Shown piece by piece: positions 9,859 to 22,038 of a stretch of DNA of 32,787 nt (positions are counted from its first letter, which is position 1; every line of letters starts with the position of its first letter). The notes beneath the pieces were generated by a model, which was not told the DNA's origin, made no database searches, and was given only the letters and a program-made list of their open reading frames with translations. Position numbers and translations under genes: made by a program. The DNA is from Providencia huaxiensis. GTDB taxonomy: Bacteria; Pseudomonadota; Gammaproteobacteria; Enterobacterales; Enterobacteriaceae. The stretch covers positions 1-32,787 of the forward strand of contig NZ_CP031118.1 in the NCBI RefSeq assembly GCF_002843235.3, given 5' to 3'.

Positions 9859-12800
9859 TTACATACTCATACCTTTATCTTGCTCTTTTTTGTTATTATT
9901 GGTTTGTTTATTTGTTTCTGGCTCAATATGTTTTTTCGCTTGAGCTACATTGTCCTCTAATTTTGCCCTTTCTGCTTTCATAGCTTTAAATTCATCAGGG
10001 CTAAATTCTTTGTTTTTAACACTGTTTTTAAATTCGTTTAATTTTTGCTCTGCATGTTTTAACGGTGTTTCTATCGTGGATGATTTAAGATTGTGAGTCT
10101 GAATATTAACAGGCTGTACGCTTCGCATATCAATTCCTTTTGTATCAATCCCCATACGTTGTAAGTCAGACTCTTTGACATTTTTCAATTCACTAACAAT
10201 TTTATCGTCTTGCTTAAAAGCCATATTAAACGATACGGATTTTTCGTAACCATCATCTTTTTGTGCAGGAACAACAATAAGTTTATTAAATTCTTTACCG
10301 TCAACAGTTGGTGTTGTAGCTGCCTGTTTTGGTTGTTCTGCTTTAGCCTGAACATTAAAGCCCTGCTCTTTCAGTTTAGCTTCGATGTTGTTTTTCGCTT
10401 GTTCTGGCATCGGAGAATATTTAGCCATTTGCTCTATTTCTTTCATAAATTGAGCATTTGGTGCGGTTTTCATTAATGCCTGAGCATATTCAGGGTTAGA
10501 TTCCACTTTACGCTGAATTTCGTAGGCACTAACTTTGTTGTTTTGAATTGCTTTCAGGTCTTGAGCTGCCATTGATTCCAGTTCGGACTTAGGCACATTA
10601 AAGTCCATAGCCTTAACTTTATTTTCAATGTTAATTCGTGCCTGTTCAGGGATTTGCGTAGGTTTTCCCATTAACTCGATACTTTGCATAGTGCTGTTAT
10701 CAGTTCCTAATGATTTCAGAGCATTAGCATATTCTGGGCTATGCTGAGATTTGAACATGATTTCATAAGCAGTGATTTTATTCTGCTCATACGCTCGTAC
10801 ATCGTTATGAGCCATTTCAGTGACTGGATTATCGGATTTAGGCTGAATGCCCGCCTGTTCTGGGGCTTTTTGTTGCTCTGGTTTTTCAACCTGTTCAACC
10901 GCCTGTTTTAACTGGCTAGGGGAAACAGGATCAGGGTTTTTCTCAACGGCGGCTTTGAGTTTTTCAGTATCAGGTTTAGCCTGAACGTCTGCCTGTTCAG
11001 GGGCTTTTTGCTCTGCGGTTATGCCTTTTGTTATGGTTGCTTGTTCCTGCTGTGCCGGTTGTTTCATTTTTTCAACATGATCAAGCATCATTTGGTGGTA
11101 TTTGTCAGGTGTTAGGATGATATTCATGCCCTTTTCTGCTGCGGTAATCGCTGCGGTCATTTTGAATTGTTCACTGCCTGATAATTGTAGCTTTCCTCCG
11201 AATTTTTTCTCTGCATACTCTAAGGCAAGAGCTATTTTTTCTTTTCCTTGTGTATCAGGAACATGCAAGTGACTTCCTTTATCAGTGAATACCTCTTTTT
11301 GGGTCTTTTTGTCTGTGTAAGTGATTTCTTTCTCTTTTTTACTGCAAACAAGGTCGGTTAATTTAACCCCTTTATCAATATCAGATTGATATTGTTGAAG
11401 AACTTTCTTTTTTTCCATTGATTTTGTAAATGATACATCTCTGTCTGCATTATATATTTCAGCCATATTTCTATCCTCTTTTGGAGTTGTAGCTCGAATT
11501 TCATTAGCAACAATTTGTTTAGCTGCCGTGATGGTATTAAGTTTTTCTGATGCTTTTAAATAATTAAACATGGCAAAGCCACGCTCTACTTCTCTTTTAT
11601 CTGTGTCTTTAATGCGGTTAATTTTAAATAGATCCCGTTGGTACTCTCGGTTTATTTGCTTTAACTCATGATAGTGCATTTTCTTTATAAGATTATCTGT
11701 TCTATTTGCTGATCGTTCATCCGTTTTTGAAAGATTGGTGTTTTTATTAAATTTAGTGTTGTTTAACTGTCCGTTATAGACTTCTATTAAATTTTCTTTT
11801 GCTTCTTTCCAATCTATTTTTAAATGCTTAGTTAAAAAATCACTGGCATTAAGATTTGTTTTCCCTACATTAAATCTTGGGCTACCATCTTTAGCAAAAG
11901 TAATAACATGGTCGTTTGGGTTTATTTTATATTTATCAGCACAAAACGCTAAAAAACGGTCAGGGTTTATTTTTGTTCGGATTTCTTTCATAACCTGTAA
12001 ATCATTATTATCAGGTTTATGTGTGATCTCTTTTTGTTCTTGTTTTAAATTACTGTTTATTCCTCTTGTATTATCCTGTGTCCATCGCATTGAGCTACTA
12101 TCATGTTGTCTTGTTTGTCGTACTTCTGCCATATCACGGCTGTTAGATGCGAACAATACAGTGTCAGATTGCTTGGTTTGTTGTCCTCTAAATCCCTGTA
12201 GCTCGTAAACCATGTGGCGTTCTTGCAACGATGGCAATCGCTCGGGCGTAAGTCGGGCATTAGGTTGTTCTCGACTAACTTTAAAACCTCGCTCAATAAG
12301 TCCTCTTGCGGATAAAGTTCTGTCACGTTCTTGATTTCTATCGTCTGTGAGATTGTATCTGTCATTGTATTTATCCTTGATTTGGTTCAAAACCTGTACT
12401 TTCTGGTCGTCAGATAACGCCTTATATGTATCACGGTTTTTTTTACTTGACGGGTAAATGTGTTTGATCTCATGGCTAGTTTTTTCTAGCCATTGCGTTA
12501 AATTCTTTTCAATTTCTTTTGGTGTTGGTTTGACAAGGGGTAGTTCCCGTTTTGTTATATACTGTTCTGAAAACAACGGGCTTTTTAATCGAGTAAACTT
12601 ATCATTATCAGGTAACTTGACCGCGTGATATTGATTTTCTTTACCTTTATTGTAGGTTTTCACTTCACCATAACGGGCTAAGTTGTCTAAAAAATCTTTT
12701 TCTGTTCTGATATTTTTAGAATCAAGATCATTAAAGATTTCTTTTTTAATGGTGTTTTCTCTACCCTTAAAAAAATCGCCTTTATAACGTGATAAAACAT

Positions 12801-13362
12801 TTGCATGATTGTTATCACTAACTCTTATGCTATCTTTAGGGCTGATTAAATTGTATTTATTGTTAATGTGTTCTTGAATTGAATCCATTAATTTGATTGA
12901 GTTAGATTTTGTTACATCACCTCTTGGATTTAATGATTTTTGAGTAACTAAATTAGTTCTTGGAATTACAATATGAATATGAGGTTTACGTTCTATTACC
13001 TCCCCTGTTTTTTCATCCGTTATATTTTTAATTTTAGGTAAATGAGCTTCGGCATAAAAACAATATTCATCTGTATGATAAGCGTTCATCAAAAGGTTTT
13101 TATATTCTTCTGTTACTGCTTGCAAAGTTTCTTTTGAAATTTCATTTTCAGCAAAAGATAAAGTGATGTGCATGTAACGCTCTTGCCCTTTATCCTCTAT
13201 ACTGTTTATTGTATTTTCAAGGTGATCAATATTACCATCTAGGATAATCCTGTTATCCAGATCATCCCGTCCGAACTCTCTACCTTGCTTTAAACCATTT
13301 TCAAGGTATTCACGGATTCCACTGTTACCGCCATTAATCCTTGCTAACATGATCAAGCCCAT
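9859..13362 (-). CDS. Relaxase with C-terminal LPD7 domain and internal duplication
   Basis: This 1167-residue protein would nick one strand at oriT, attach to the 5' end and pilot it through the channel. The N-terminus has a candidate catalytic Tyr19 in GGNSGIREYLENG and a metal-binding triad: H107 (EAHLP) with H128 and H130 in PHIHIVIPR. The motif order resembles MOBP-type relaxases, but I cannot fix the subclass. A variable linker (about 330-440) also encodes another gene in a second frame. A helical region and an LPD7-like domain follow, with FTDKGSHLHVPDTQGKEK and LSGSEQFKMTAAIT. Next comes a Pro/Gln/Glu-rich stretch with two similar units of about 75 residues. The start may be 13362 or the ATG at 13350; either overlaps the MobC-like gene. 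Confidence 0.88.
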   Translation of the reverse strand: MGLIMLARINGGNSGIREYLENGLKQGREFGRDDLDNRIILDGNIDHLENTINSIEDKGQERYMHITLSFAENEISKETLQAVTEEYKNLLMNAYHTDEYCFYAEAHLPKIKNITDEKTGEVIERKPHIHIVIPRTNLVTQKSLNPRGDVTKSNSIKLMDSIQEHINNKYNLISPKDSIRVSDNNHANVLSRYKGDFFKGRENTIKKEIFNDLDSKNIRTEKDFLDNLARYGEVKTYNKGKENQYHAVKLPDNDKFTRLKSPLFSEQYITKRELPLVKPTPKEIEKNLTQWLEKTSHEIKHIYPSSKKNRDTYKALSDDQKVQVLNQIKDKYNDRYNLTDDRNQERDRTLSARGLIERGFKVSREQPNARLTPERLPSLQERHMVYELQGFRGQQTKQSDTVLFASNSRDMAEVRQTRQHDSSSMRWTQDNTRGINSNLKQEQKEITHKPDNNDLQVMKEIRTKINPDRFLAFCADKYKINPNDHVITFAKDGSPRFNVGKTNLNASDFLTKHLKIDWKEAKENLIEVYNGQLNNTKFNKNTNLSKTDERSANRTDNLIKKMHYHELKQINREYQRDLFKINRIKDTDKREVERGFAMFNYLKASEKLNTITAAKQIVANEIRATTPKEDRNMAEIYNADRDVSFTKSMEKKKVLQQYQSDIDKGVKLTDLVCSKKEKEITYTDKKTQKEVFTDKGSHLHVPDTQGKEKIALALEYAEKKFGGKLQLSGSEQFKMTAAITAAEKGMNIILTPDKYHQMMLDHVEKMKQPAQQEQATITKGITAEQKAPEQADVQAKPDTEKLKAAVEKNPDPVSPSQLKQAVEQVEKPEQQKAPEQAGIQPKSDNPVTEMAHNDVRAYEQNKITAYEIMFKSQHSPEYANALKSLGTDNSTMQSIELMGKPTQIPEQARINIENKVKAMDFNVPKSELESMAAQDLKAIQNNKVSAYEIQRKVESNPEYAQALMKTAPNAQFMKEIEQMAKYSPMPEQAKNNIEAKLKEQGFNVQAKAEQPKQAATTPTVDGKEFNKLIVVPAQKDDGYEKSVSFNMAFKQDDKIVSELKNVKESDLQRMGIDTKGIDMRSVQPVNIQTHNLKSSTIETPLKHAEQKLNEFKNSVKNKEFSPDEFKAMKAERAKLEDNVAQAKKHIEPETNKQTNNNKKEQDKGMSM
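12057..12365 (-). CDS. Small four-cysteine protein nested in the relaxase gene in another frame
   Basis: This 102-residue protein is encoded on the same strand as the relaxase but in a different frame, inside the relaxase's variable linker. AAGGA lies 8 bases before the ATG, better than the relaxase's own ribosome-binding site. The protein is not random-looking. It has C44-x2-C47, an aromatic NATWF, C71 in LTLYCSHL, and C93 in AQCDG, which suggests a zinc site. From memory, small plasmid transfer proteins with the pattern CxxCxxAxW...C...CDG exist, but I cannot name one with certainty. It may be a relaxase partner or regulator. This is the only out-of-frame reading I accept inside a large gene. 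Confidence 0.68.
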   Translation of the reverse strand: MTDTISQTIEIKNVTELYPQEDLLSEVLKLVENNLMPDLRPSDCHRCKNATWFTSYRDLEDNKPSNLTLYCSHLTAVIWQKYDKQDNMIVAQCDGHRIIQEE

Positions 13363-13690
13363 TTAGCAGGTTATCACTAATACGGTTCAAAGCATTAAGG
13401 CAAAGTAAAGCCTGATGCTCGGTTATCGTTCCTGATTTTGCAAGCGTGTTAAACTGCTTGGCAATTTGATTCATGTTATTACTCGTTTTATTGAAAAGCC
13501 TGATTAGCTCAAGGTATTGTCTATCCCTCTTTTTGTTATGAATTTCTGGGTTAAGTTTAGCCGTTAACTGCAATCTGAAAAATTCAGATTTACTCTGCCC
13601 TAATGCCTCCATAGCCTGTTTAAACGGCTCATACTCTGCATCCGTCAACCTTAATGTAACATGATTACTCCTGTTTTCTTTTTCTTTCAT
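13334..13690 (-). CDS. MobC-like relaxosome accessory protein
   Basis: This 118-residue protein starts with a ribbon-helix-helix (HVTLRLTDAEYEPFKQAMEALGQSKSEFFRLQL, read in two parts: strand then helices). A helical C-terminal half with KTSNNMNQIAKQFNTLAKSG is typical of MobC/NikA-type proteins, which bind oriT beside the nick and help the relaxase. It is the first gene of the minus-strand mobilisation operon, directly next to the oriT hairpins, and overlaps the relaxase start by 29 bases (17 if the second ATG is used). Palindromes just upstream probably allow autoregulation. Confidence 0.82.
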   Translation of the reverse strand: MKEKENRSNHVTLRLTDAEYEPFKQAMEALGQSKSEFFRLQLTAKLNPEIHNKKRDRQYLELIRLFNKTSNNMNQIAKQFNTLAKSGTITEHQALLCLNALNRISDNLLNGLDHVSKD

Positions 13691-13712
13691 AGGCTCGTAG
13701 AGACTCCATTTA

Positions 13713-13765
13713 CATGATTAAAACCATGATTTAATCATGGGGGTTTAAAGGGGAACTCCCCTTTA
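13713..13765. promoter_or_regulatory. Two perfect inverted repeats upstream of the mobilisation operon
   Basis: A 10-bp inverted repeat (13713-13722 with 13730-13739, catgattaaa) is followed by an 8-bp one (13746-13753 with 13758-13765, taaagggg). They lie between the start of the MobC-like gene and the larger oriT hairpin. The first also resembles a MobC or relaxase operator over the minus-strand promoter; TAATCATG-type -10 sequence is present inside it. Confidence 0.6.
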
Positions 13766-13814
13766 GCACACGATTGTAGCAAAACTTTAGTTTTGTGTAC
13801 AATCGGTCTCGTGC
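13766..13814. other. Probable origin of transfer (oriT) hairpin
   Basis: A 49-base imperfect hairpin is built of three nested arms: gcac/gtgc at the ends, cgattgta/tacaatcg (13771-13778 with 13798-13805), and caaaac/gttttg (13780-13785 with 13790-13795), with loop ttta. It sits in the only large gap between divergent genes, beside the MobC-like and relaxase genes. This is where oriT lies in related plasmids. I cannot place the nick: no known consensus is evident. Alternatively it could be a strong transcription block. Confidence 0.65.
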
Positions 13815-13843
13815 CTTAGTAATATTTGATGAGTAATTTAAAA

Positions 13844-13966
13844 CGGCAATAATACGCTAATAAACCGACAAAACAACGGCAATAAAACGGCATTAAATGG
13901 ATAAAAACAAAGAAAAGCGGCACATATACGACAATTTAACGGCAAATATACGACAATTTAACGGCA
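13844..13966. repeat. Six phased CGGCA repeats, candidate partition or autoregulatory site
   Basis: CGGCA occurs at 13844, 13877, 13888, 13918, 13940 and 13962, nearly always preceded by AA or AAA. The spacings are 33, 11, 30, 22 and 22 bases, all close to whole helical turns, so the sites face one side of the DNA. The last two lie in a perfect 22-bp direct repeat (atatacgacaatttaacggc). They end just before the promoter of the operon at 14025. In R388, StbA binds direct repeats at the same place; a matching role here is an inference. Confidence 0.7.
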
Positions 13967-13973
13967 AAAACCA

Positions 13974-14019
13974 TTGACACTTAGAAAAATTTGATTATGA
14001 TGTTATTTCACATAAGGAG
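13974..14019 (+). promoter_or_regulatory. Promoter and ribosome-binding site of the stb-like operon
   Basis: TTGACA (13974-13979) and TATGAT (13996-14001) are 16 bases apart, a near-consensus sigma-70 promoter. AAGGAG (14014-14019) lies 5 bases before the ATG at 14025. The phased CGGCA repeats end 7 bases upstream of the -35, so a protein bound there could control it. Confidence 0.75.
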
Positions 14020-14024
14020 TCGGT

Positions 14025-17962: not shown

Positions 17963-17997
17963 TAGAATGCCCCTTTTGGGTTAGTAAGTTAAAACTA

Positions 17998-18231
17998 TTA
18001 TAAACTTTTATTAGCTAGCTTTCTTTTTCTTTTCGTCAAAATATAATTAGGGTGTTCATTAGCCAATAATAAAAAAAACTCCCATTCAAGTTTGGATAAA
18101 TTACTACTATTTTGTGTGTTTACTTCTTCTTTTTTTTGCCAACTTCTTAAACTAGATCCTAAAATTTCAGCGCATTCTTTTGTGTTTAGACCTAATTTCT
18201 CTCTAATTCTTGTTACTTCTTTACCGTTCAT
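17998..18231 (-). CDS. Small XRE/antitoxin-like helix-turn-helix protein
   Basis: This 77-residue protein starts MNGKEVTRIREKLGLNTKECAEILGSS and continues with LRSWQKKEEV. That is an XRE-type helix-turn-helix in which residues 16-34 form the recognition unit. A second amphipathic helix and a basic tail follow. It is probably a transcription regulator of the minus-strand cluster. No toxin gene is obvious beside it. A perfect 14-bp inverted repeat (18256-18288) lies 25 bases upstream of its start and may be its operator. Confidence 0.68.
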   Translation of the reverse strand: MNGKEVTRIREKLGLNTKECAEILGSSLRSWQKKEEVNTQNSSNLSKLEWEFFLLLANEHPNYILTKRKRKLANKSL

Positions 18232-18255
18232 AAATACAGACTCCTATCTATTTTT

Positions 18256-18288
18256 AATTTACTAAAGGCTCGATGCCTTTAGTAAATT
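18256..18288. promoter_or_regulatory. Perfect 14-bp inverted repeat upstream of the XRE-like gene
   Basis: aatttactaaaggc (18256-18269) is repeated in inverted form at 18275-18288 with a 5-base spacer. Neither strand carries a T-run after it, so an operator is more likely than a terminator. It lies between the end of the DnaJ-domain gene and the XRE-like gene. Confidence 0.5.
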
Positions 18289-18293
18289 ATACG

Positions 18294-18324: not shown

Positions 18325-18834
18325 TTATGCTTTGATACGTTTTGCCCCTACTGCGTTTTTTTCTCCGCTTGTGCCGTATTTTGCCCTGATTTCTTCCATT
18401 GTGTGCGATTTACGGTTACGACTCGCTTTGTATTCTTCAGGGCGGTAGTACCACATTAATTTTTTTGGCGACCATTTACAGCCAATTCCATTAAGTTGGT
18501 CTTTGTGGGGTTTTGTCTCTCCACTAATCCAGATCCAATTGCCTGTAACCTCAAAAACAACGCCTAACATGCCATGTAATGCGTTTAGCACTTTTTCGAG
18601 TTCTTCCCCATAGTTGTAGGCTGTTGCTTCTCCTGTCTGTTGGTATGTATTCAGATTATCAATGTTAGCCATAATCATTTCATACGCTGCATTAATCGCT
18701 TTCATCATTTCAGAACCAATCGGATTGCGGTCAGGGTGAAACTTTAACGCTAGTTTTTTAAATGTGGCTTTTACGTCTTTCTCTGTAAGTTCACCTGATA
18801 AACCGAAAACATTTAGGGCTTGCTGTAAGTTCAT
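18325..18834 (-). CDS. DnaJ-domain protein behind duplicated upstream element A
   Basis: This 169-residue protein has an N-terminal J domain (about 1-60) with the HPD motif at residues 33-35 (LKFHPDRNP), which stimulates DnaK. The C-terminal part has VTGNWIWISGETKPH and WSPKKLMWYYRPEEY and is not a standard DnaJ zinc or substrate domain. It may target DnaK to a plasmid or replication protein. It starts directly at the end of the 340-bp repeat A, with AAAAGGGAA about 6 bases upstream. Its orientation is toward oriT, as expected of leading-region genes. Confidence 0.85.
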   Translation of the reverse strand: MNLQQALNVFGLSGELTEKDVKATFKKLALKFHPDRNPIGSEMMKAINAAYEMIMANIDNLNTYQQTGEATAYNYGEELEKVLNALHGMLGVVFEVTGNWIWISGETKPHKDQLNGIGCKWSPKKLMWYYRPEEYKASRNRKSHTMEEIRAKYGTSGEKNAVGAKRIKA

Positions 18835-19173
18835 AATAATTTCCCTTTTGGGTTAGTGAGTGGGGCTAATTCCCCTGTCTCTATGTGTTAATAATACGAC
18901 TTTTTAGTCGTTGAGTCAAGCAAATTTCACCTAAATAAATATATTTTTTTCATATAGTTAAATTTAAATTCTGTTTTTTTATGCCCGTAAACGGGCATGT
19001 AAGGCAACAACACGAAAGGAAAGGGATCACTAATGCGGATTTGCCGATAAAAAAGGGGGGGCTATTGGGCTGCTCTGCACCCATCCCCTGCGCTGCTAGA
19101 CGGGTTTTGTCCTTGAATACACTTAAAGCATCACGATAGTTTGACGGTCGGAGACAAAAGAAAGGAACAACGA
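18832..19173 (-). repeat. Conserved upstream element, copy A (promoter-bearing, about 340 bp)
   Basis: This near-copy of 19673-20006 lies exactly upstream of the DnaJ-domain gene. Reading toward the gene it holds the stretch cgttgttcctttcttttgtc, then a region able to fold (gggctgctctgcaccc), then a perfect 8-bp hairpin atgcccgt/acgggcat. Next are a TTGACT-17-TATTAT promoter (18891-18919) with an inverted repeat in its spacer, and the leader with AAAAGGG. By eye the copies differ mainly in homopolymer lengths and in a few bases around the promoter. No gene is seen in it. Confidence 0.88.
18891..18919 (-). promoter_or_regulatory. Promoter A with palindromic spacer
   Basis: On the minus strand TTGACT (18919-18914) and TATTAT (18896-18891) are 17 bases apart. 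The spacer contains ACGACT and its inverted copy AGTCGT around an AAAA centre, a good site for a repressor. The stop-to-start distance to the DnaJ-domain gene is about 55 bases. Confidence 0.78.
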
Positions 19174-19210
19174 AAAATAATAGGGGTTTTTACACCCCTA
19201 TTATTATATT
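19172..19210 (-). terminator. Terminator of the 45-residue gene
   Basis: A perfect 12-bp stem (19176-19187 with 19194-19205) and a 6-base loop lie just after the stop codon at 19213 on the minus strand, followed by TTTTTcg. It insulates repeat A from the upstream genes. Confidence 0.85.
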
Positions 19211-19212
19211 AG

Positions 19213-19350
19213 TTAAAACATTTCATAACCTTGTAAATAATTAAGCCACCATCTGAAATTTTCCCATTGCTCCCCGTTCATAGCTGGCACTGTTGCTTTT
19301 TGACCTTTGACAAGTCGCACCGCAGCTTGTAACATTGGATTCGTTAACAT
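19213..19350 (-). CDS. 45-residue hypothetical protein
   Basis: This small protein begins MLTNPMLQAAVRLVKGQKA and ends in a Trp-rich segment (WENFRWWLNYLQGYEMF). It is unknown to me. I start at 19350 because AAGAGG lies 7 bases upstream. An in-frame GTG at 19413 would put the start inside a perfect hairpin and 13 bases from the nearest ribosome-binding site. It follows the gene at 19448 and shares its promoter in repeat B. A terminator follows it directly. Confidence 0.58.
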   Translation of the reverse strand: MLTNPMLQAAVRLVKGQKATVPAMNGEQWENFRWWLNYLQGYEMF

Positions 19351-19381
19351 TTTAAAACCTCTTAACCTTAAATTGTTGACA

Positions 19382-19411
19382 GTGTTCAGGTTGTTGTAGC
19401 AACCTGAACAC
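19382..19411 (-). promoter_or_regulatory. Perfect 12-bp hairpin in the leader of the 45-residue gene
   Basis: gtgttcaggttg (19382-19393) pairs with 19400-19411 across a 6-base loop. AAGGAGGTG lies 9-20 bases before it on the minus strand with no ATG at a normal distance. In the mRNA the hairpin separates this strong ribosome-binding site from the start at 19350. It may be a processing site, attenuator or the remains of a leader peptide. Confidence 0.6.
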
Positions 19412-19447
19412 ACCCTAAAATTAACACCTCCTTTTTTAATTGATTAA

Positions 19448-19675
19448 CTAAACTTCAACCGCCTTTATTCCAAAATAACCATTCATTTCATAATCTCTTA
19501 TTTTATTTAAGAGTTCATTTGTGTTTTCAATTAAAATCGGTAAGGTTTCAATGTTAATAATTTCTTTATTTACATTGAAAGATTTAAAGAAAAATTTGAA
19601 TTTTTTACTTTCATTGAAAAGTAAATTACTGACTATTGTTTGGGTAGGATTTAAAATAAATATATTTGTGTTCAT
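19448..19675 (-). CDS. 75-residue hypothetical protein behind upstream element B
   Basis: This 75-residue protein has no recognised domain. It has alternating hydrophobic and Lys/Asn-rich segments and ends in MNGYFGIKAVEV. Its start codon is at the same place in repeat B as the DnaJ-domain start is in repeat A, with the same AAAAGGGAAAT leader. It and the 45-residue gene form one short operon. As a first-expressed leading-region candidate its function is worth testing, but I have no homology to offer. Confidence 0.66.
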   Translation of the reverse strand: MNTNIFILNPTQTIVSNLLFNESKKFKFFFKSFNVNKEIINIETLPILIENTNELLNKIRDYEMNGYFGIKAVEV

Positions 19676-20006
19676 AATATTTCCCTTTTGGGTTAGTGAG
19701 TGGGGCTATCCCCTCTCGATGTGTTAATAATACGACTTTTAAGTCGTATAGTCAAGCGAATTTCACCTAAATAAATATATTTTTCAGATAGTTAAATTTA
19801 AATTCTGTTTTTTTTATGCCCGTAAACGGGCATGTAAGGCAACAACACGAAAGGAAAGGGATCACTATTGCGGATTTGCCGATAAAAAGGGCGAGCTATT
19901 GGGCTGCTCTGCACCCATCCCCTGCGCTGCTAGACGGGTTTGTCCTTGAATAGACTCAAAGCATCACGATAGTTTGACGGTCGGAGACAAAAGAAAGGAA
20001 CAACGA
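19673..20006 (-). repeat. Conserved upstream element, copy B (promoter-bearing, about 334 bp)
   Basis: This is the second copy of the element at 18832-19173, in the same orientation and directly upstream of the gene that starts at 19675. It has a TTGACT-17-TATTAT promoter (19727-19755) with the spacer palindrome tacgactt/aagtcgta, the perfect atgcccgt/acgggcat hairpin (about 19817-19834), the foldable gggctgctctgcaccc region and the same distal end. Almost all differences from copy A are single bases or run lengths, and the promoter hairpin stems are kept although their bases differ. Confidence 0.88.
19727..19755 (-). promoter_or_regulatory. Promoter B with palindromic spacer
   Basis: On the minus strand TTGACT (19755-19750) and TATTAT (19732-19727) are 17 bases apart, the same as in copy A. 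The spacer inverted repeat is longer here: 8-bp arms TACGACTT and AAGTCGTA with 2 bases between. The half-site ACGACTT also occurs in every oriV iteron. Confidence 0.78.
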
Positions 20007-20010
20007 TGAT

Positions 20011-20041
20011 TAGGTTATCCACATAAAAAGTGAATAACCTA
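20011..20041. other. Stem-loop with DnaA box between repeat B and the rep region
   Basis: taggttatccac (20011-20022) pairs with 20030-20041 with one mismatch and a 7-base loop. The left arm contains TTATCCACA (20015-20023), a consensus DnaA box. It lies just outside repeat B and 58 bases beyond the stop of the frame described next, so it may be a replication element or the end of rep-side transcription. Confidence 0.5.
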
Positions 20042-20099: not shown

Positions 20100-20378
20100 T
20101 TATTTTTCATCCAATATGGATATACACTTAAACTCAACACCACCATAATATATTTCCTTTTTTATTTCTGGTTTATTTAGTAATGCTTTTAATTTTTCAC
20201 ATTTTTCAATATTTTTGACTGGAGTTAAATTTGTTGTAAAACGCATATCCCTTTTATTGTATGCAATTAAAAAACTTGTATTATCAGCATCATCAATTTT
20301 ATCTGAAATCTCATTTAATTTTTCAATTTGATTAACATCAATAGTGGGGTTTCCTGCTGCTACAGATATTAGTTTAAT
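20100..20378 (-). pseudogene. Open frame without a start codon, overlapping the end of rep
   Basis: On the minus strand 92 sense codons are open from 20378 to the stop at 20100. The composition is protein-like (NPTIDVNQIEKLNEISDKID, then NTSFLIAYNKRDMRF, ending YYGGVEFKCISILDEK). No ATG, GTG or TTG occurs before an internal ATG at 20246, which would give only 48 residues. The frame is minus-one relative to rep, and rep ends inside it. It could be a C-terminal extension of Rep reached by frameshift, a coupled gene starting at ATT (AGGA lies 9 bases before one), or a decayed gene. Confidence 0.5.
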
Positions 20379-21229
20379 TTATAAAGGTTATTTTCAATTT
20401 CATTTAGTTCTTGATTCAATTTCTTTTCTTCCTGACGCCTTATATCATTAATATGTTGATAGGATATTTTTAAATGAGTAGCCTTTCTTCCTTTTTTTTC
20501 AGCTATTTCAAAACTTACAATTTTGAATGATGTATTTTCTTTTAACCCTTTGATTAATGAATTTAATAATTTAGCTAGATCAGCATATCTTGGGTATTTA
20601 TATACTTTATTCTTGCCGTCATTATCAGTGTTAAATAACCACATTTCATCTTTTAATTCTTCTATACCAATAATAAATGATGTTTTATAAGCAATATTTA
20701 TATTGGACTTGGAGTAACGCTTCATAATTACTTGATGTAAATTAAATAAAGTCTTTTCAGGTATTTTCAATACCTCTTGTAAATTATTTCTTGTAAACGA
20801 CTTTGATAAGGCAAAGAAATAAGGATAAGCATCCCTATTTATTTTTATAGTACAATAACCCTCGCTGTAATGATAAATAACTTTTGATGTAATGTTAGTC
20901 TGCATTGTTCTTTTTAATGAACCTTTGCTAACATCCTCATAAATAAACGATTTTGATAAATCTCTGGCTGCTGACTCTAACGTTCCGTAAATATTAACTT
21001 TGTCACTTAACCCACAAAGTTTTGAAAAATCACTGGCTTTAATTTCAAAAATCAACTCATCGTCTTTAGGAATTTCTTTTGGATTATCAATCTGTGCTAG
21101 CATTAAAAACAATGCTCTTTTTGCTTGTAATGTTAAATTTGAAAGTGAATATTGAAAATTATCAGAATGCCTACAAACGGTTGATTCATTGGCATTTTTC
21201 AAGCCTGATTTTTTAAGTGGATTTGACAT
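20369..21229 (-). CDS. rep: Replication initiator, Rep_3 family
   Basis: This 286-residue initiator binds the iterons upstream and opens the origin. Two winged-helix domains are expected. The N-terminal SLSNLTLQAKRALFLMLAQID and FEIKASDFSKLCGLSDKVNIYGTLESAA are typical of RepB/RepE/pi-type (Rep_3) proteins. The second domain contains LYKYPRYADLAKLLNSL-like text (KVYKYPRYADLAKLLNSLIKG, read as two pieces) and a basic DNA-binding stretch (KKGRKATHLKISYQHI). GAGGAG lies 6 bases before the ATG. The promoter is next to a single iteron, so Rep probably represses itself. The C-terminus is a coiled-coil-like tail. Confidence 0.92.
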   Translation of the reverse strand: MSNPLKKSGLKNANESTVCRHSDNFQYSLSNLTLQAKRALFLMLAQIDNPKEIPKDDELIFEIKASDFSKLCGLSDKVNIYGTLESAARDLSKSFIYEDVSKGSLKRTMQTNITSKVIYHYSEGYCTIKINRDAYPYFFALSKSFTRNNLQEVLKIPEKTLFNLHQVIMKRYSKSNINIAYKTSFIIGIEELKDEMWLFNTDNDGKNKVYKYPRYADLAKLLNSLIKGLKENTSFKIVSFEIAEKKGRKATHLKISYQHINDIRRQEEKKLNQELNEIENNLYKLN

Positions 21230-21363: not shown

Positions 21364-21438
21364 TTAAAGTTAAAATAAATAAATATAAATCAATGGCTTA
21401 TATCGGTGTTGATTGAAATACAACCTTCCGACAATATT

Positions 21439-21570
21439 AACGACTTCTCACACCACCTTTAACGACTTTCCACACCACCTTTAACGACTTTCCACACCAC
21501 CTTTAACGACTTTCCACACCACCTTTAACGACTTTCCACACCACCTTTAACGACTTTCCACACCACCTTA
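21439..21570. repeat. Six tandem 22-bp iterons (oriV)
   Basis: The unit aacgactttccacaccacct plus tt is repeated head to tail at 21439, 21461, 21483, 21505, 21527 and 21549. Units 2-5 are identical, unit 1 has one change (ttctca) and unit 6 differs only at its last base. A 22-bp period places the sites on one face of the helix. Together with the distal iteron, the DnaA box, the AT-rich region and the adjacent rep gene, this is the replication origin. Confidence 0.95.
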
Positions 21571-22038
21571 AATAACATAAATAATTGTTATATATGTATT
21601 AGTTAGACCTGCAAGGTTTTAAAAAAGAAAAAAAAAGAAAAAGGTATTAAGGGCTGGCGTTCTCTTTGAGTGTGAATAACTTTGAAATTTTTAGCGTCTC
21701 TAACTGAACGCCCTCCGCTTCGCTCGGTTGTCTAACAGCGACACCGAACCGCAAAAACAAGTTTTGCGATTCTCTCGCTGTTCTGTCTTTAATTTATTCA
21801 ATTCTGTTTGCTAACAGGCTTCTGTAAGCGATTCTAAGCGTTTTTTTAACTACTGGCTTAGTGATTCATCAATTTTAGCTAAAAGTCGTTCTACGAGCCT
21901 CTCTCGTTGTTTTGGTGTTAGTTGTGTTCTCCATATAGATCGGCTGTAACGTCTATTGTATGATTTGCTACAAAATCATGAAGTTGTAATATGATTTTAT
22001 GGGAATAGATATAGTTATCTATTTGGTGATTTTTTAAC
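21571..22038. other. Non-coding stretch with hairpins and palindromes between oriV and the transfer operon
   Basis: About 470 bases hold no gene I accept. Near 21745-21788 a hairpin cgcaaaa/ttttgcg lies inside a wider inverted repeat aacagcga/tcgctgtt. At 21960-21998 the element atgattt occurs three times in alternating orientation (21960, 21972 inverted, 21991). At 22004-22023 there is an 8-bp inverted repeat aatagata. A 41-codon minus-strand open frame (21850-21975) without a start codon ends in LTPKQRERLVERLLAKIDES and may be a gene remnant. The palindromes nearer to 22039 probably belong to transfer-operon control. Confidence 0.5.

What the first reader, a model, noticed from the sequence alone, without database searches (positions are those of the whole stretch)
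18832..20006. Two 340-bp conserved upstream elements in a probable leading region, CUP- or Frpo-like
Copies at 18832-19173 and 19673-20006 each end exactly at a start codon on the minus strand. Only the last 90 bases are needed for the ordinary promoter and leader, yet about 250 further bases are conserved, with perfect or compensated hairpins. The genes behind them point to oriT on the side opposite the relaxase, the orientation required if the entering strand is the template. IncN CUP elements and the F-plasmid Frpo do this; these may be a new family of single-stranded promoters or priming sites.
Basis: partly seen in the sequence, partly recalled or inferred. Interest (0 to 1): 0.88.

Follow-up and report, generated by a model that had tools for sequence, protein, structure and literature searches.

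The report
DNA-copying start sites before establishment genes
Two matching stretches on a conjugative plasmid each appear to join a start site for copying single-stranded DNA to a repressor-controlled promoter, which could let genes be read soon after the plasmid enters a new cell.

Summary
The two ~340-bp copies are real (94% identical) and conserved beyond this plasmid. Each is a composite. The upstream ~205 bp (module S) also stands alone on many enterobacterial plasmids. Its 3' half is homologous to four IncN CUP elements, its 5' half to the pSC101 par region. Its central block aligns with the annotated primer start of phage G4, and an S model hits R100 downstream of repA, where the primase 'G-site' lies (recalled). 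S also follows the pIV gene in two filamentous phages, its predicted template on the viral strand. S is therefore most likely a G4-type (DnaG) single-strand initiation site. The downstream ~120 bp (module P) is a sigma-70 promoter whose spacer palindrome differs between plasmids but recurs among P copies within most: an operator, probably for a leading-region HTH protein. In the window the predicted template is the inferred entering strand, so priming would make promoter and gene double-stranded early. Frpo is not supported: no long T-strand hairpin, -35/-10 mostly unpaired. Nothing was tested at the bench; S copies beside oriT in IncX point the other way.

The parts
18972..19175 (-). Module S copy 1: G4-type single-strand initiation site; predicted template is the + strand
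   Evidence: nhmmer S model E 1.1e-46 (training member); CM R1 hit at 18976-19107 (training member)
19804..20008 (-). Module S copy 2
   Evidence: nhmmer E 1.9e-47 (training member); CM R1 hit at 19811-19941 (training member)
19143..19160 (-). S 5' block CTTTTGTCTCCGACCGTC, copy 1; a near-identical block is in the pSC101 par region
   Evidence: read; aligned
19976..19993 (-). S 5' block, copy 2
   Evidence: read; aligned
19093..19095 (+). Predicted primase start, CTG on the template (+) strand, copy 1; the G4 primer start aligns here
   Evidence: CTG start rule recalled
19927..19929 (+). Predicted primase start, copy 2
18981..18998 (.). Terminal hairpin H1 copy 1, conserved by compensating changes
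19816..19833 (.). Terminal hairpin H1 copy 2
18830..18951 (-). Module P copy 1: sigma-70 promoter (-35 18914-18919, -10 18891-18896), operator-like palindrome in spacer 18897-18913, leader
   Evidence: (training member)
19676..19787 (-). Module P copy 2 (-35 19750-19755, -10 19727-19732, spacer 19733-19749 with palindrome)
   Evidence: (training member)
18325..18834 (-). J-domain (DnaJ) protein gene behind copy 1
   Evidence: PF00226 E 1.5e-9
19448..19675 (-). 75-aa ORF behind copy 2, no Pfam match at E 0.1
17998..18231 (-). 77-aa HTH protein, candidate repressor of P (next gene after the J-domain gene; whether in one transcript is not known)
   Evidence: PF20432 E 3.3e-5 and PF15731 E 6.7e-5, both below the curated cut-offs; relatives aligned
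20369..21229 (-). Rep_3 initiator gene
   Evidence: PF01051 E 8.5e-19
21437..21590 (.). 22-bp direct repeats (iterons), probable vegetative origin
13334..13690 (-). NikA-like relaxosome protein gene
   Evidence: PF21983 E 2.6e-10
9859..13362 (-). Relaxase with LPD7 domain
   Evidence: PF03432 E 2.9e-5, PF18821 E 2.2e-16
13691..14024 (.). Probable oriT region (inferred; inverted repeat 13771-13778/13798-13805; nic not found)

Best explanation
Each element is a G4-type single-strand DNA initiation site (S, ~205 bp) placed upstream of an ordinary but repressed sigma-70 promoter (P). When the transferred strand (+ strand, inferred) enters a recipient, host primase (DnaG) on SSB-coated DNA recognises S and starts a primer at the conserved CTG (19093-19095; 19927-19929). 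DNA polymerase III extends it towards oriT, which within about 200-260 nt makes P and then the gene double-stranded. The recipient lacks the plasmid's HTH repressor, so P fires (zygotic induction) until the repressor, encoded downstream of copy 1, accumulates and shuts P off again. Shown by computation: homologies, block order, covariation of the terminal hairpin, strand choice in two filamentous phages, shared operators within most plasmids. Inferred: DnaG dependence, transfer direction in this plasmid, identity of the repressor, early expression.
For: (1) S recurs on unrelated replicons with conserved block order and spacing. (2) The S3 model, built from 22 plasmid copies without phage, R100 or F, has its best whole-genome hit, on the right strand, at the complementary-strand-origin primer start of G4 (annotated in the record; GGCTTTGC|AGTAGGG aligns with S GGCTTAGC|AGGGAGGGG) and at the corresponding place between genes G and H of alpha3, phiK and St-1 (by homology to G4, not annotated): 4 of 4 phages. 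0 of 60 shuffles reach the score for alpha3, phiK and St-1. M13 gives no hit with the S3 or extended model. (3) The same model hits R100 downstream of repA at E 3.4e-5 and F near oriT at E 0.0016 (0 of 20 shuffles each). (4) Full S lies after pIV in the host's tandem inovirus prophage (E 5.7e-20) and in a diverged IMG/VR inovirus (E 5.3e-24), in both with the predicted template on the gene-sense strand, which is the packaged strand in filamentous phages (recalled). (5) H1: 47 of 48 pairs over 8 distinct left arms against 35.9 permuted, 1 of 20000. (6) Where a probable nic was found, 4 of 4 leading-region S or half-S copies (IncX8 L031 two; IncX4 L004 two, weak, E 0.027 and 0.028, aligned) have the template on the T-strand. 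(7) Window and IncX4 share an operator and the stretch of the HTH protein read here as its recognition-helix region.
Against: The G4 hit is at noise level (E 0.58; 12 of 60 shuffles reach it); the negative control phiX174 scores almost as high (E 0.79; 11 of 60), though elsewhere in its genome: for G4 only the place tells. alpha3, phiK and St-1 are close relatives and count about once. In one search one copy stood for each arm; 5 of all 20 copies have one mismatch. oriT-proximal S copies in IncX3, IncX4 and IncX8 (0 of 3) have the template on the non-transferred strand. pSC101 and others carry only the S5 half, IncN and the IncX4 leading copies only the S3 half. One inovirus relative (L095) has no S in the 470 nt held after pIV, only a partial hit elsewhere (E 0.0016). 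S copies beside oriV suggest a vegetative role as well. Statements on G-site function and CTG starts are recalled.
Confidence: 0.64

Rival explanations
1. Single-stranded promoter of Frpo type: the T-strand folds so that -35 and -10 are double-stranded and RNA polymerase transcribes and primes from it.
For: Leading-region position, gene orientation and hairpins; the spacer palindrome would form on ssDNA.
Against: Fold no better than shuffles while the 328 nt upstream of F ssb give z -4.58; -35/-10 mostly unpaired; no S or P match at that F region; P recurs without S.
Confidence: 0.08
2. Cis-acting stability site of pSC101 par type that binds DNA gyrase and raises local supercoiling.
For: The S5 half lies at L033 4379-4482 in pSC101 (E 2.9e-15), between the AvaI and HincII sites and between the sequences to which the par-deletion primers of PMC4041236 (passages) correspond; par binds gyrase (PMC4041236, PMC5043065, passages). 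Both orientations occur in one plasmid (L005, L031), which suits a strand-independent site.
Against: Does not explain the match to phage primer starts, the viral-strand template in two inoviruses, or covariation of the H1 hairpin, over which the model did not match pSC101.
Confidence: 0.12
3. Vegetative replication signal (leading- or lagging-strand start near oriV, like the R1 G-site) with no role in transfer; linkage to P is incidental.
For: In the plasmids examined by eye, leading-region S copies point away from the rep/iteron region; S5 copies lie beside or downstream of rep in several plasmids.
Against: Two copies in the window and four in the R46 leading region, each upstream of a promoter; IncN copies lie up to about 8 kb from rep.
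Confidence: 0.15

Closest known systems
IncN CUP elements (pKM101/R46; Delver & Belogurov 1997, known from citing papers)
   Same: Same S3 block, hairpin, -35/17/-10 layout, position and orientation before leading-region operons; repressor-controlled regulon (passages)
   Different: The models find no S5 half in R46; its operator and repressor (ArdK, TrfB-like per PMC6289460, passages) differ from the spacer palindrome and small HTH here
R1/R100 G-site (recalled: Masai & Arai 1989)
   Same: S3 model hits R100 downstream of repA, E 3.4e-5
   Different: Lies downstream of repA, not before a leading-region operon; R100 was not searched for P
Complementary-strand origins of phages G4, alpha3, phiK, St-1
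   Same: Primer-start block and strand
   Different: The model aligns only about 24-30 positions; S adds a 5' block and its own 3' part
pSC101 par
   Same: S5 half (E 2.9e-15)
   Different: No S3 half found by the model; function in print is gyrase binding and stability
F Frpo / ssi promoters
   Same: Leading-region position and orientation
   Different: No S or P match at the region upstream of ssb; no long T-strand hairpin

Membership tests
IncN CUP elements | Sequence homology to the conserved upstream block | tested here: met
   4 sites before leading-region genes plus 1 near rep in R46, E 3.9e-5 to 6.9e-9; alignment. That these are the published CUPs is inferred from gene order
IncN CUP elements | Placed at the 5' end of leading-region operons, all in one orientation | tested here: met
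   transfer direction of the window inferred
IncN CUP elements | Controlled by ArdK | not testable with these tools
   Different palindrome and a different candidate repressor; no binding assay possible
G4-type (DnaG) single-strand initiation site | Primer-start block as in G4-type phages, right strand | tested here: met
   Best genome-wide hit in 4 of 4 phages, significant against shuffles in alpha3, phiK, St-1; G4 alone is not, and phiX174 scores nearly as high elsewhere
G4-type (DnaG) single-strand initiation site | CTG start triplet on the template (recalled rule) | tested here: met
   CAG in 19 of 21, 20 of 22 and 14 of 17 alignment rows; L039 reads TAG; L038, pSC101 and L035 look shifted by one column; X3o has a gap
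G4-type (DnaG) single-strand initiation site | Conserved stem-loops downstream of the start | tested here: inconclusive
   One hairpin (H1) covaries; other stem-loops were not tested, and RNAalifold on the 16-copy alignment found 8 pairs, 0 with double changes
G4-type (DnaG) single-strand initiation site | Used by ssDNA replicons with template on the packaged strand | tested here: met
   2 of 2 inoviruses carrying S after pIV; L095 has none in the 470 nt held, L097 no sequence held
G4-type (DnaG) single-strand initiation site | Priming by primase alone with SSB | not testable with these tools
   needs purified proteins
Frpo single-stranded promoter | T-strand forms a long hairpin with -35 and -10 paired | tested here: not met
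   F region as control
Frpo single-stranded promoter | Sequence similarity to F Frpo | tested here: not met
   no S or P model hit at the region upstream of F ssb; no published Frpo sequence was at hand
pSC101 par | Homology to the par region | tested here: met
   S5 half only
pSC101 par | Gyrase binding | not testable with these tools
   no assay; the published GC periodicity was not computed
phiX174-type primosome site / M13 RNA-polymerase-type origin | Similarity to S | tested here: not met
   phiX174: best hit E 0.79, 11 of 60 shuffles as good; M13: none with two models, E 5.5 with the third

The most novel reading that the evidence does not exclude
Priming-coupled zygotic induction: a widespread module in which a primase site is fused upstream of a repressed promoter so that the entering strand is made double-stranded exactly where establishment genes start. 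It would be an alternative to Frpo, shared by IncN CUPs and IncX-like plasmids and built from the same element as the R1 G-site, pSC101 par and some filamentous-phage origins.
Probability: 0.5. Interest if true: 0.82.

Novelty: new variant of a known kind. Interest (0 to 1): 0.66.

Why it matters
In the passages I saw, CUP elements are treated as repressor-controlled promoters; what their long conserved upstream part does is not stated there. [quoted passage not shown] It would also tie together separately described sites: IncN CUPs, the R1/R100 G-site, pSC101 par, G4-type origins and filamentous-phage origins. Scans for leading-region promoters that start from known Frpo/ssi sequences and -35/-10 consensus (as in PMC11541004, passages) may miss it.

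Tried and rejected
Frpo/ssDNA promoter: folded both copies and an F control; rejected. Rfam: no match at gathering score. Covariation by RNAalifold on the first 16-copy alignment: 8 pairs, 0 with double changes; covariation was seen only when the hairpin was compared arm by arm, with the first listed copy standing for each distinct arm. The permutation for the spacer palindromes is biased because each centre was chosen to maximise pairing, and Citrobacter and R46 lack the palindrome; I use the palindromes descriptively. 'Within one plasmid the same palindrome' holds for the window (core), IncX4, L031 and L039; L005 has one imperfect copy (Kp1); the Proteus plasmids share a CCCG/CGGG core with variable flanks, and three more P copies (Pv5, Pm1, Pt5) did not fit my promoter pattern. 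Blast of the element against phages: two Geobacillus phage matches at E 0.4, taken as chance; none for the prophage S. Blast search of 295 family genomes: 21 with a match, beside the window's own two only short ones, mostly the AT-rich part. The CM found S in 49 of 295 (own genome included; the model was trained on IncN, IncX, R100 and F copies among others, so plasmids of those kinds are expected). Viral pattern scans: 4 contigs with the central motif and only short S hits, and none. R6K was not held under the accession tried. Gyrase periodicity was considered, not computed. Hand-picked sets: S model 13 copies (Yersinia, Citrobacter and one Proteus duplicate of the 16 left out), extended model 21, S5 17, S3 22. 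Matches of training members are by construction.

Literature: ten searches listed no paper that joins CUP with primase sites, judged from titles, starts of abstracts and passages of 15 papers. The key older papers are not held (Wahle & Kornberg 1988) or were not looked up (Delver & Belogurov 1997, Nomura 1991, Masai & Arai 1989 and 1997), so this is no proof of novelty.

Full report
What is there. The window is contig C1, 32.8 kb, of a 4.8-Mb genome: a plasmid by its content, with T4SS genes, a NikA-like protein and an LPD7 relaxase, a Rep_3 initiator and 22-bp direct repeats. The two copies at 18832-19173 and 19673-20006 are real and 94% identical. Each consists of an upstream module S (~205 bp) and a downstream promoter module P (~120 bp). 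In other plasmids S occurs without P and P without S.

Module S. Blast with the element hit 125 plasmid records, none covering 80% of it (the 60 listed hit the promoter part or a central block). The central block hit 20 records and the far upstream part 17. These parts lie at about constant spacing in Proteus, Providencia and Klebsiella plasmids. With models built from such copies, S or a half of it was found in pSC101 (between AvaI and HincII sites), a 1.5-kb Col(MG828) plasmid, Arsenophonus, Morganella, Yersinia and Pantoea plasmids, IncX3, IncX4 and IncX8 plasmids, and R46. In R46 the 3' half sits upstream of ccgAI, ardA, ccgD and ardB, the genes behind the IncN CUP elements, and once near rep. 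In L005 and L031 S occurs in both orientations.

What S is. The block GGCTTAGCAGGGAGGGG aligns with the complementary-strand origin of G4-type phages; in the G4 record the RNA primer is annotated from exactly this place. A model of 22 plasmid copies has its best hit there in G4 and at the corresponding place in alpha3, phiK and St-1 (E 0.58, 0.031, 0.031, 0.031); shuffles reach these scores in 12, 0, 0 and 0 of 60. The controls: phiX174 has E 0.79 (11 of 60), elsewhere in the genome, so the G4 score by itself is noise and only its place counts; M13 has no hit with two models and E 5.5 with the third. R100 downstream of repA scores E 3.4e-5 with this model (0.088 and 0.18 with the other two) and F near oriT E 0.0016. 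From recall, the R1/R100 'G-site' that primase alone uses lies there; PMC10989972 (one figure legend seen) marks an ssi on the R1 replicon.

Filamentous phages. A covariance model of the S3 part found two further copies in the host chromosome at E 2.9e-14 (a fifth match at E 0.09 was not followed). They lie in a tandem prophage with an 8865-bp period that carries pIV, Zot/pI, a Rep_trans protein and a G3P-like protein, each just after pIV and with the predicted template on the gene-sense strand, the packaged strand in such phages (recalled). A diverged inovirus from IMG/VR shows the same. A nearer relative (L095) shows none in the 470 nt held after pIV, only a partial hit elsewhere; for a third (L097) no sequence after pIV is held. 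In 295 family genomes (own included) 49 have a match at E <= 0.001.

Structure. The terminal hairpin keeps its pairing through changes: 15 of 20 copies compared are perfect over six pairs and 5 have one mismatch; with one copy per distinct left arm, 47 of 48 pairs are kept against 35.9 by permutation (1 of 20000). The whole + strand does not fold better than chance.

Module P. TTGACT-17-TATTAT in both copies. The spacer holds a palindrome that is shared by the window and IncX4 and differs in IncX8, Proteus, L038, L039 and IncX3, while Citrobacter and R46 lack it at this place. [quoted passage not shown] window and IncX4, with the same operator, also share its WQKKEEVNTQNS stretch. I read P as a repressed promoter. 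In print, ArdK binds CUP sites (PMC6289460, passages; putative sites in PMC5371602).

Strand. In IncX3, IncX4 and IncX8 relatives TATCCTGC marks a probable nic (consensus recalled). The entering strand then runs from oriT into the leading region. Leading-region S or half-S copies have their template on it in 4 of 4 cases (two of them weak hits); the copy beside oriT does not in 3 of 3. For the window the same layout is assumed. The oriT-proximal copies remain unexplained; they may serve vegetative replication.

Mechanism and rivals. Primase starts on the entering strand at S, synthesis runs over P and the gene, and P fires in a cell without repressor. Frpo is unlikely. A gyrase/par role is possible in addition. 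A purely vegetative role is not excluded.

Noticed in passing
window 20011-20041: Hairpin (12-nt arms, 92% complementary) containing a DnaA-box-like TTATCCACA directly beyond copy 2, like the recalled R6K ABC-primosome site.
   Followed up: partly
L033:4379-4482 (pSC101): pSC101 par region carries the S5 half with a primer-start-like block; par may include a priming site.
   Followed up: partly
L090 (host chromosome C6:1563500-1579500): Tandem filamentous prophage, 8865-bp period, with S after pIV.
   Followed up: yes
L004:12641-12829, L042:10606-10807, L031:8872-9078: S copy beside oriT in IncX plasmids, opposite in orientation to the leading-region copies of L004 and L031.
   Followed up: partly
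window 18255-18289: Perfect 15-bp inverted repeat between the J-domain gene and the HTH gene, no T-run after it on the minus strand.
   Followed up: no
window 17967-17996: Partial copy (67% identical) of the P leader upstream of the 185-aa ORF; the P model finds no promoter there.
   Followed up: no
L034 (1506-bp Col(MG828) plasmid): A 1.5-kb plasmid devotes about 180 bp to an S element (E 3.2e-10).
   Followed up: no
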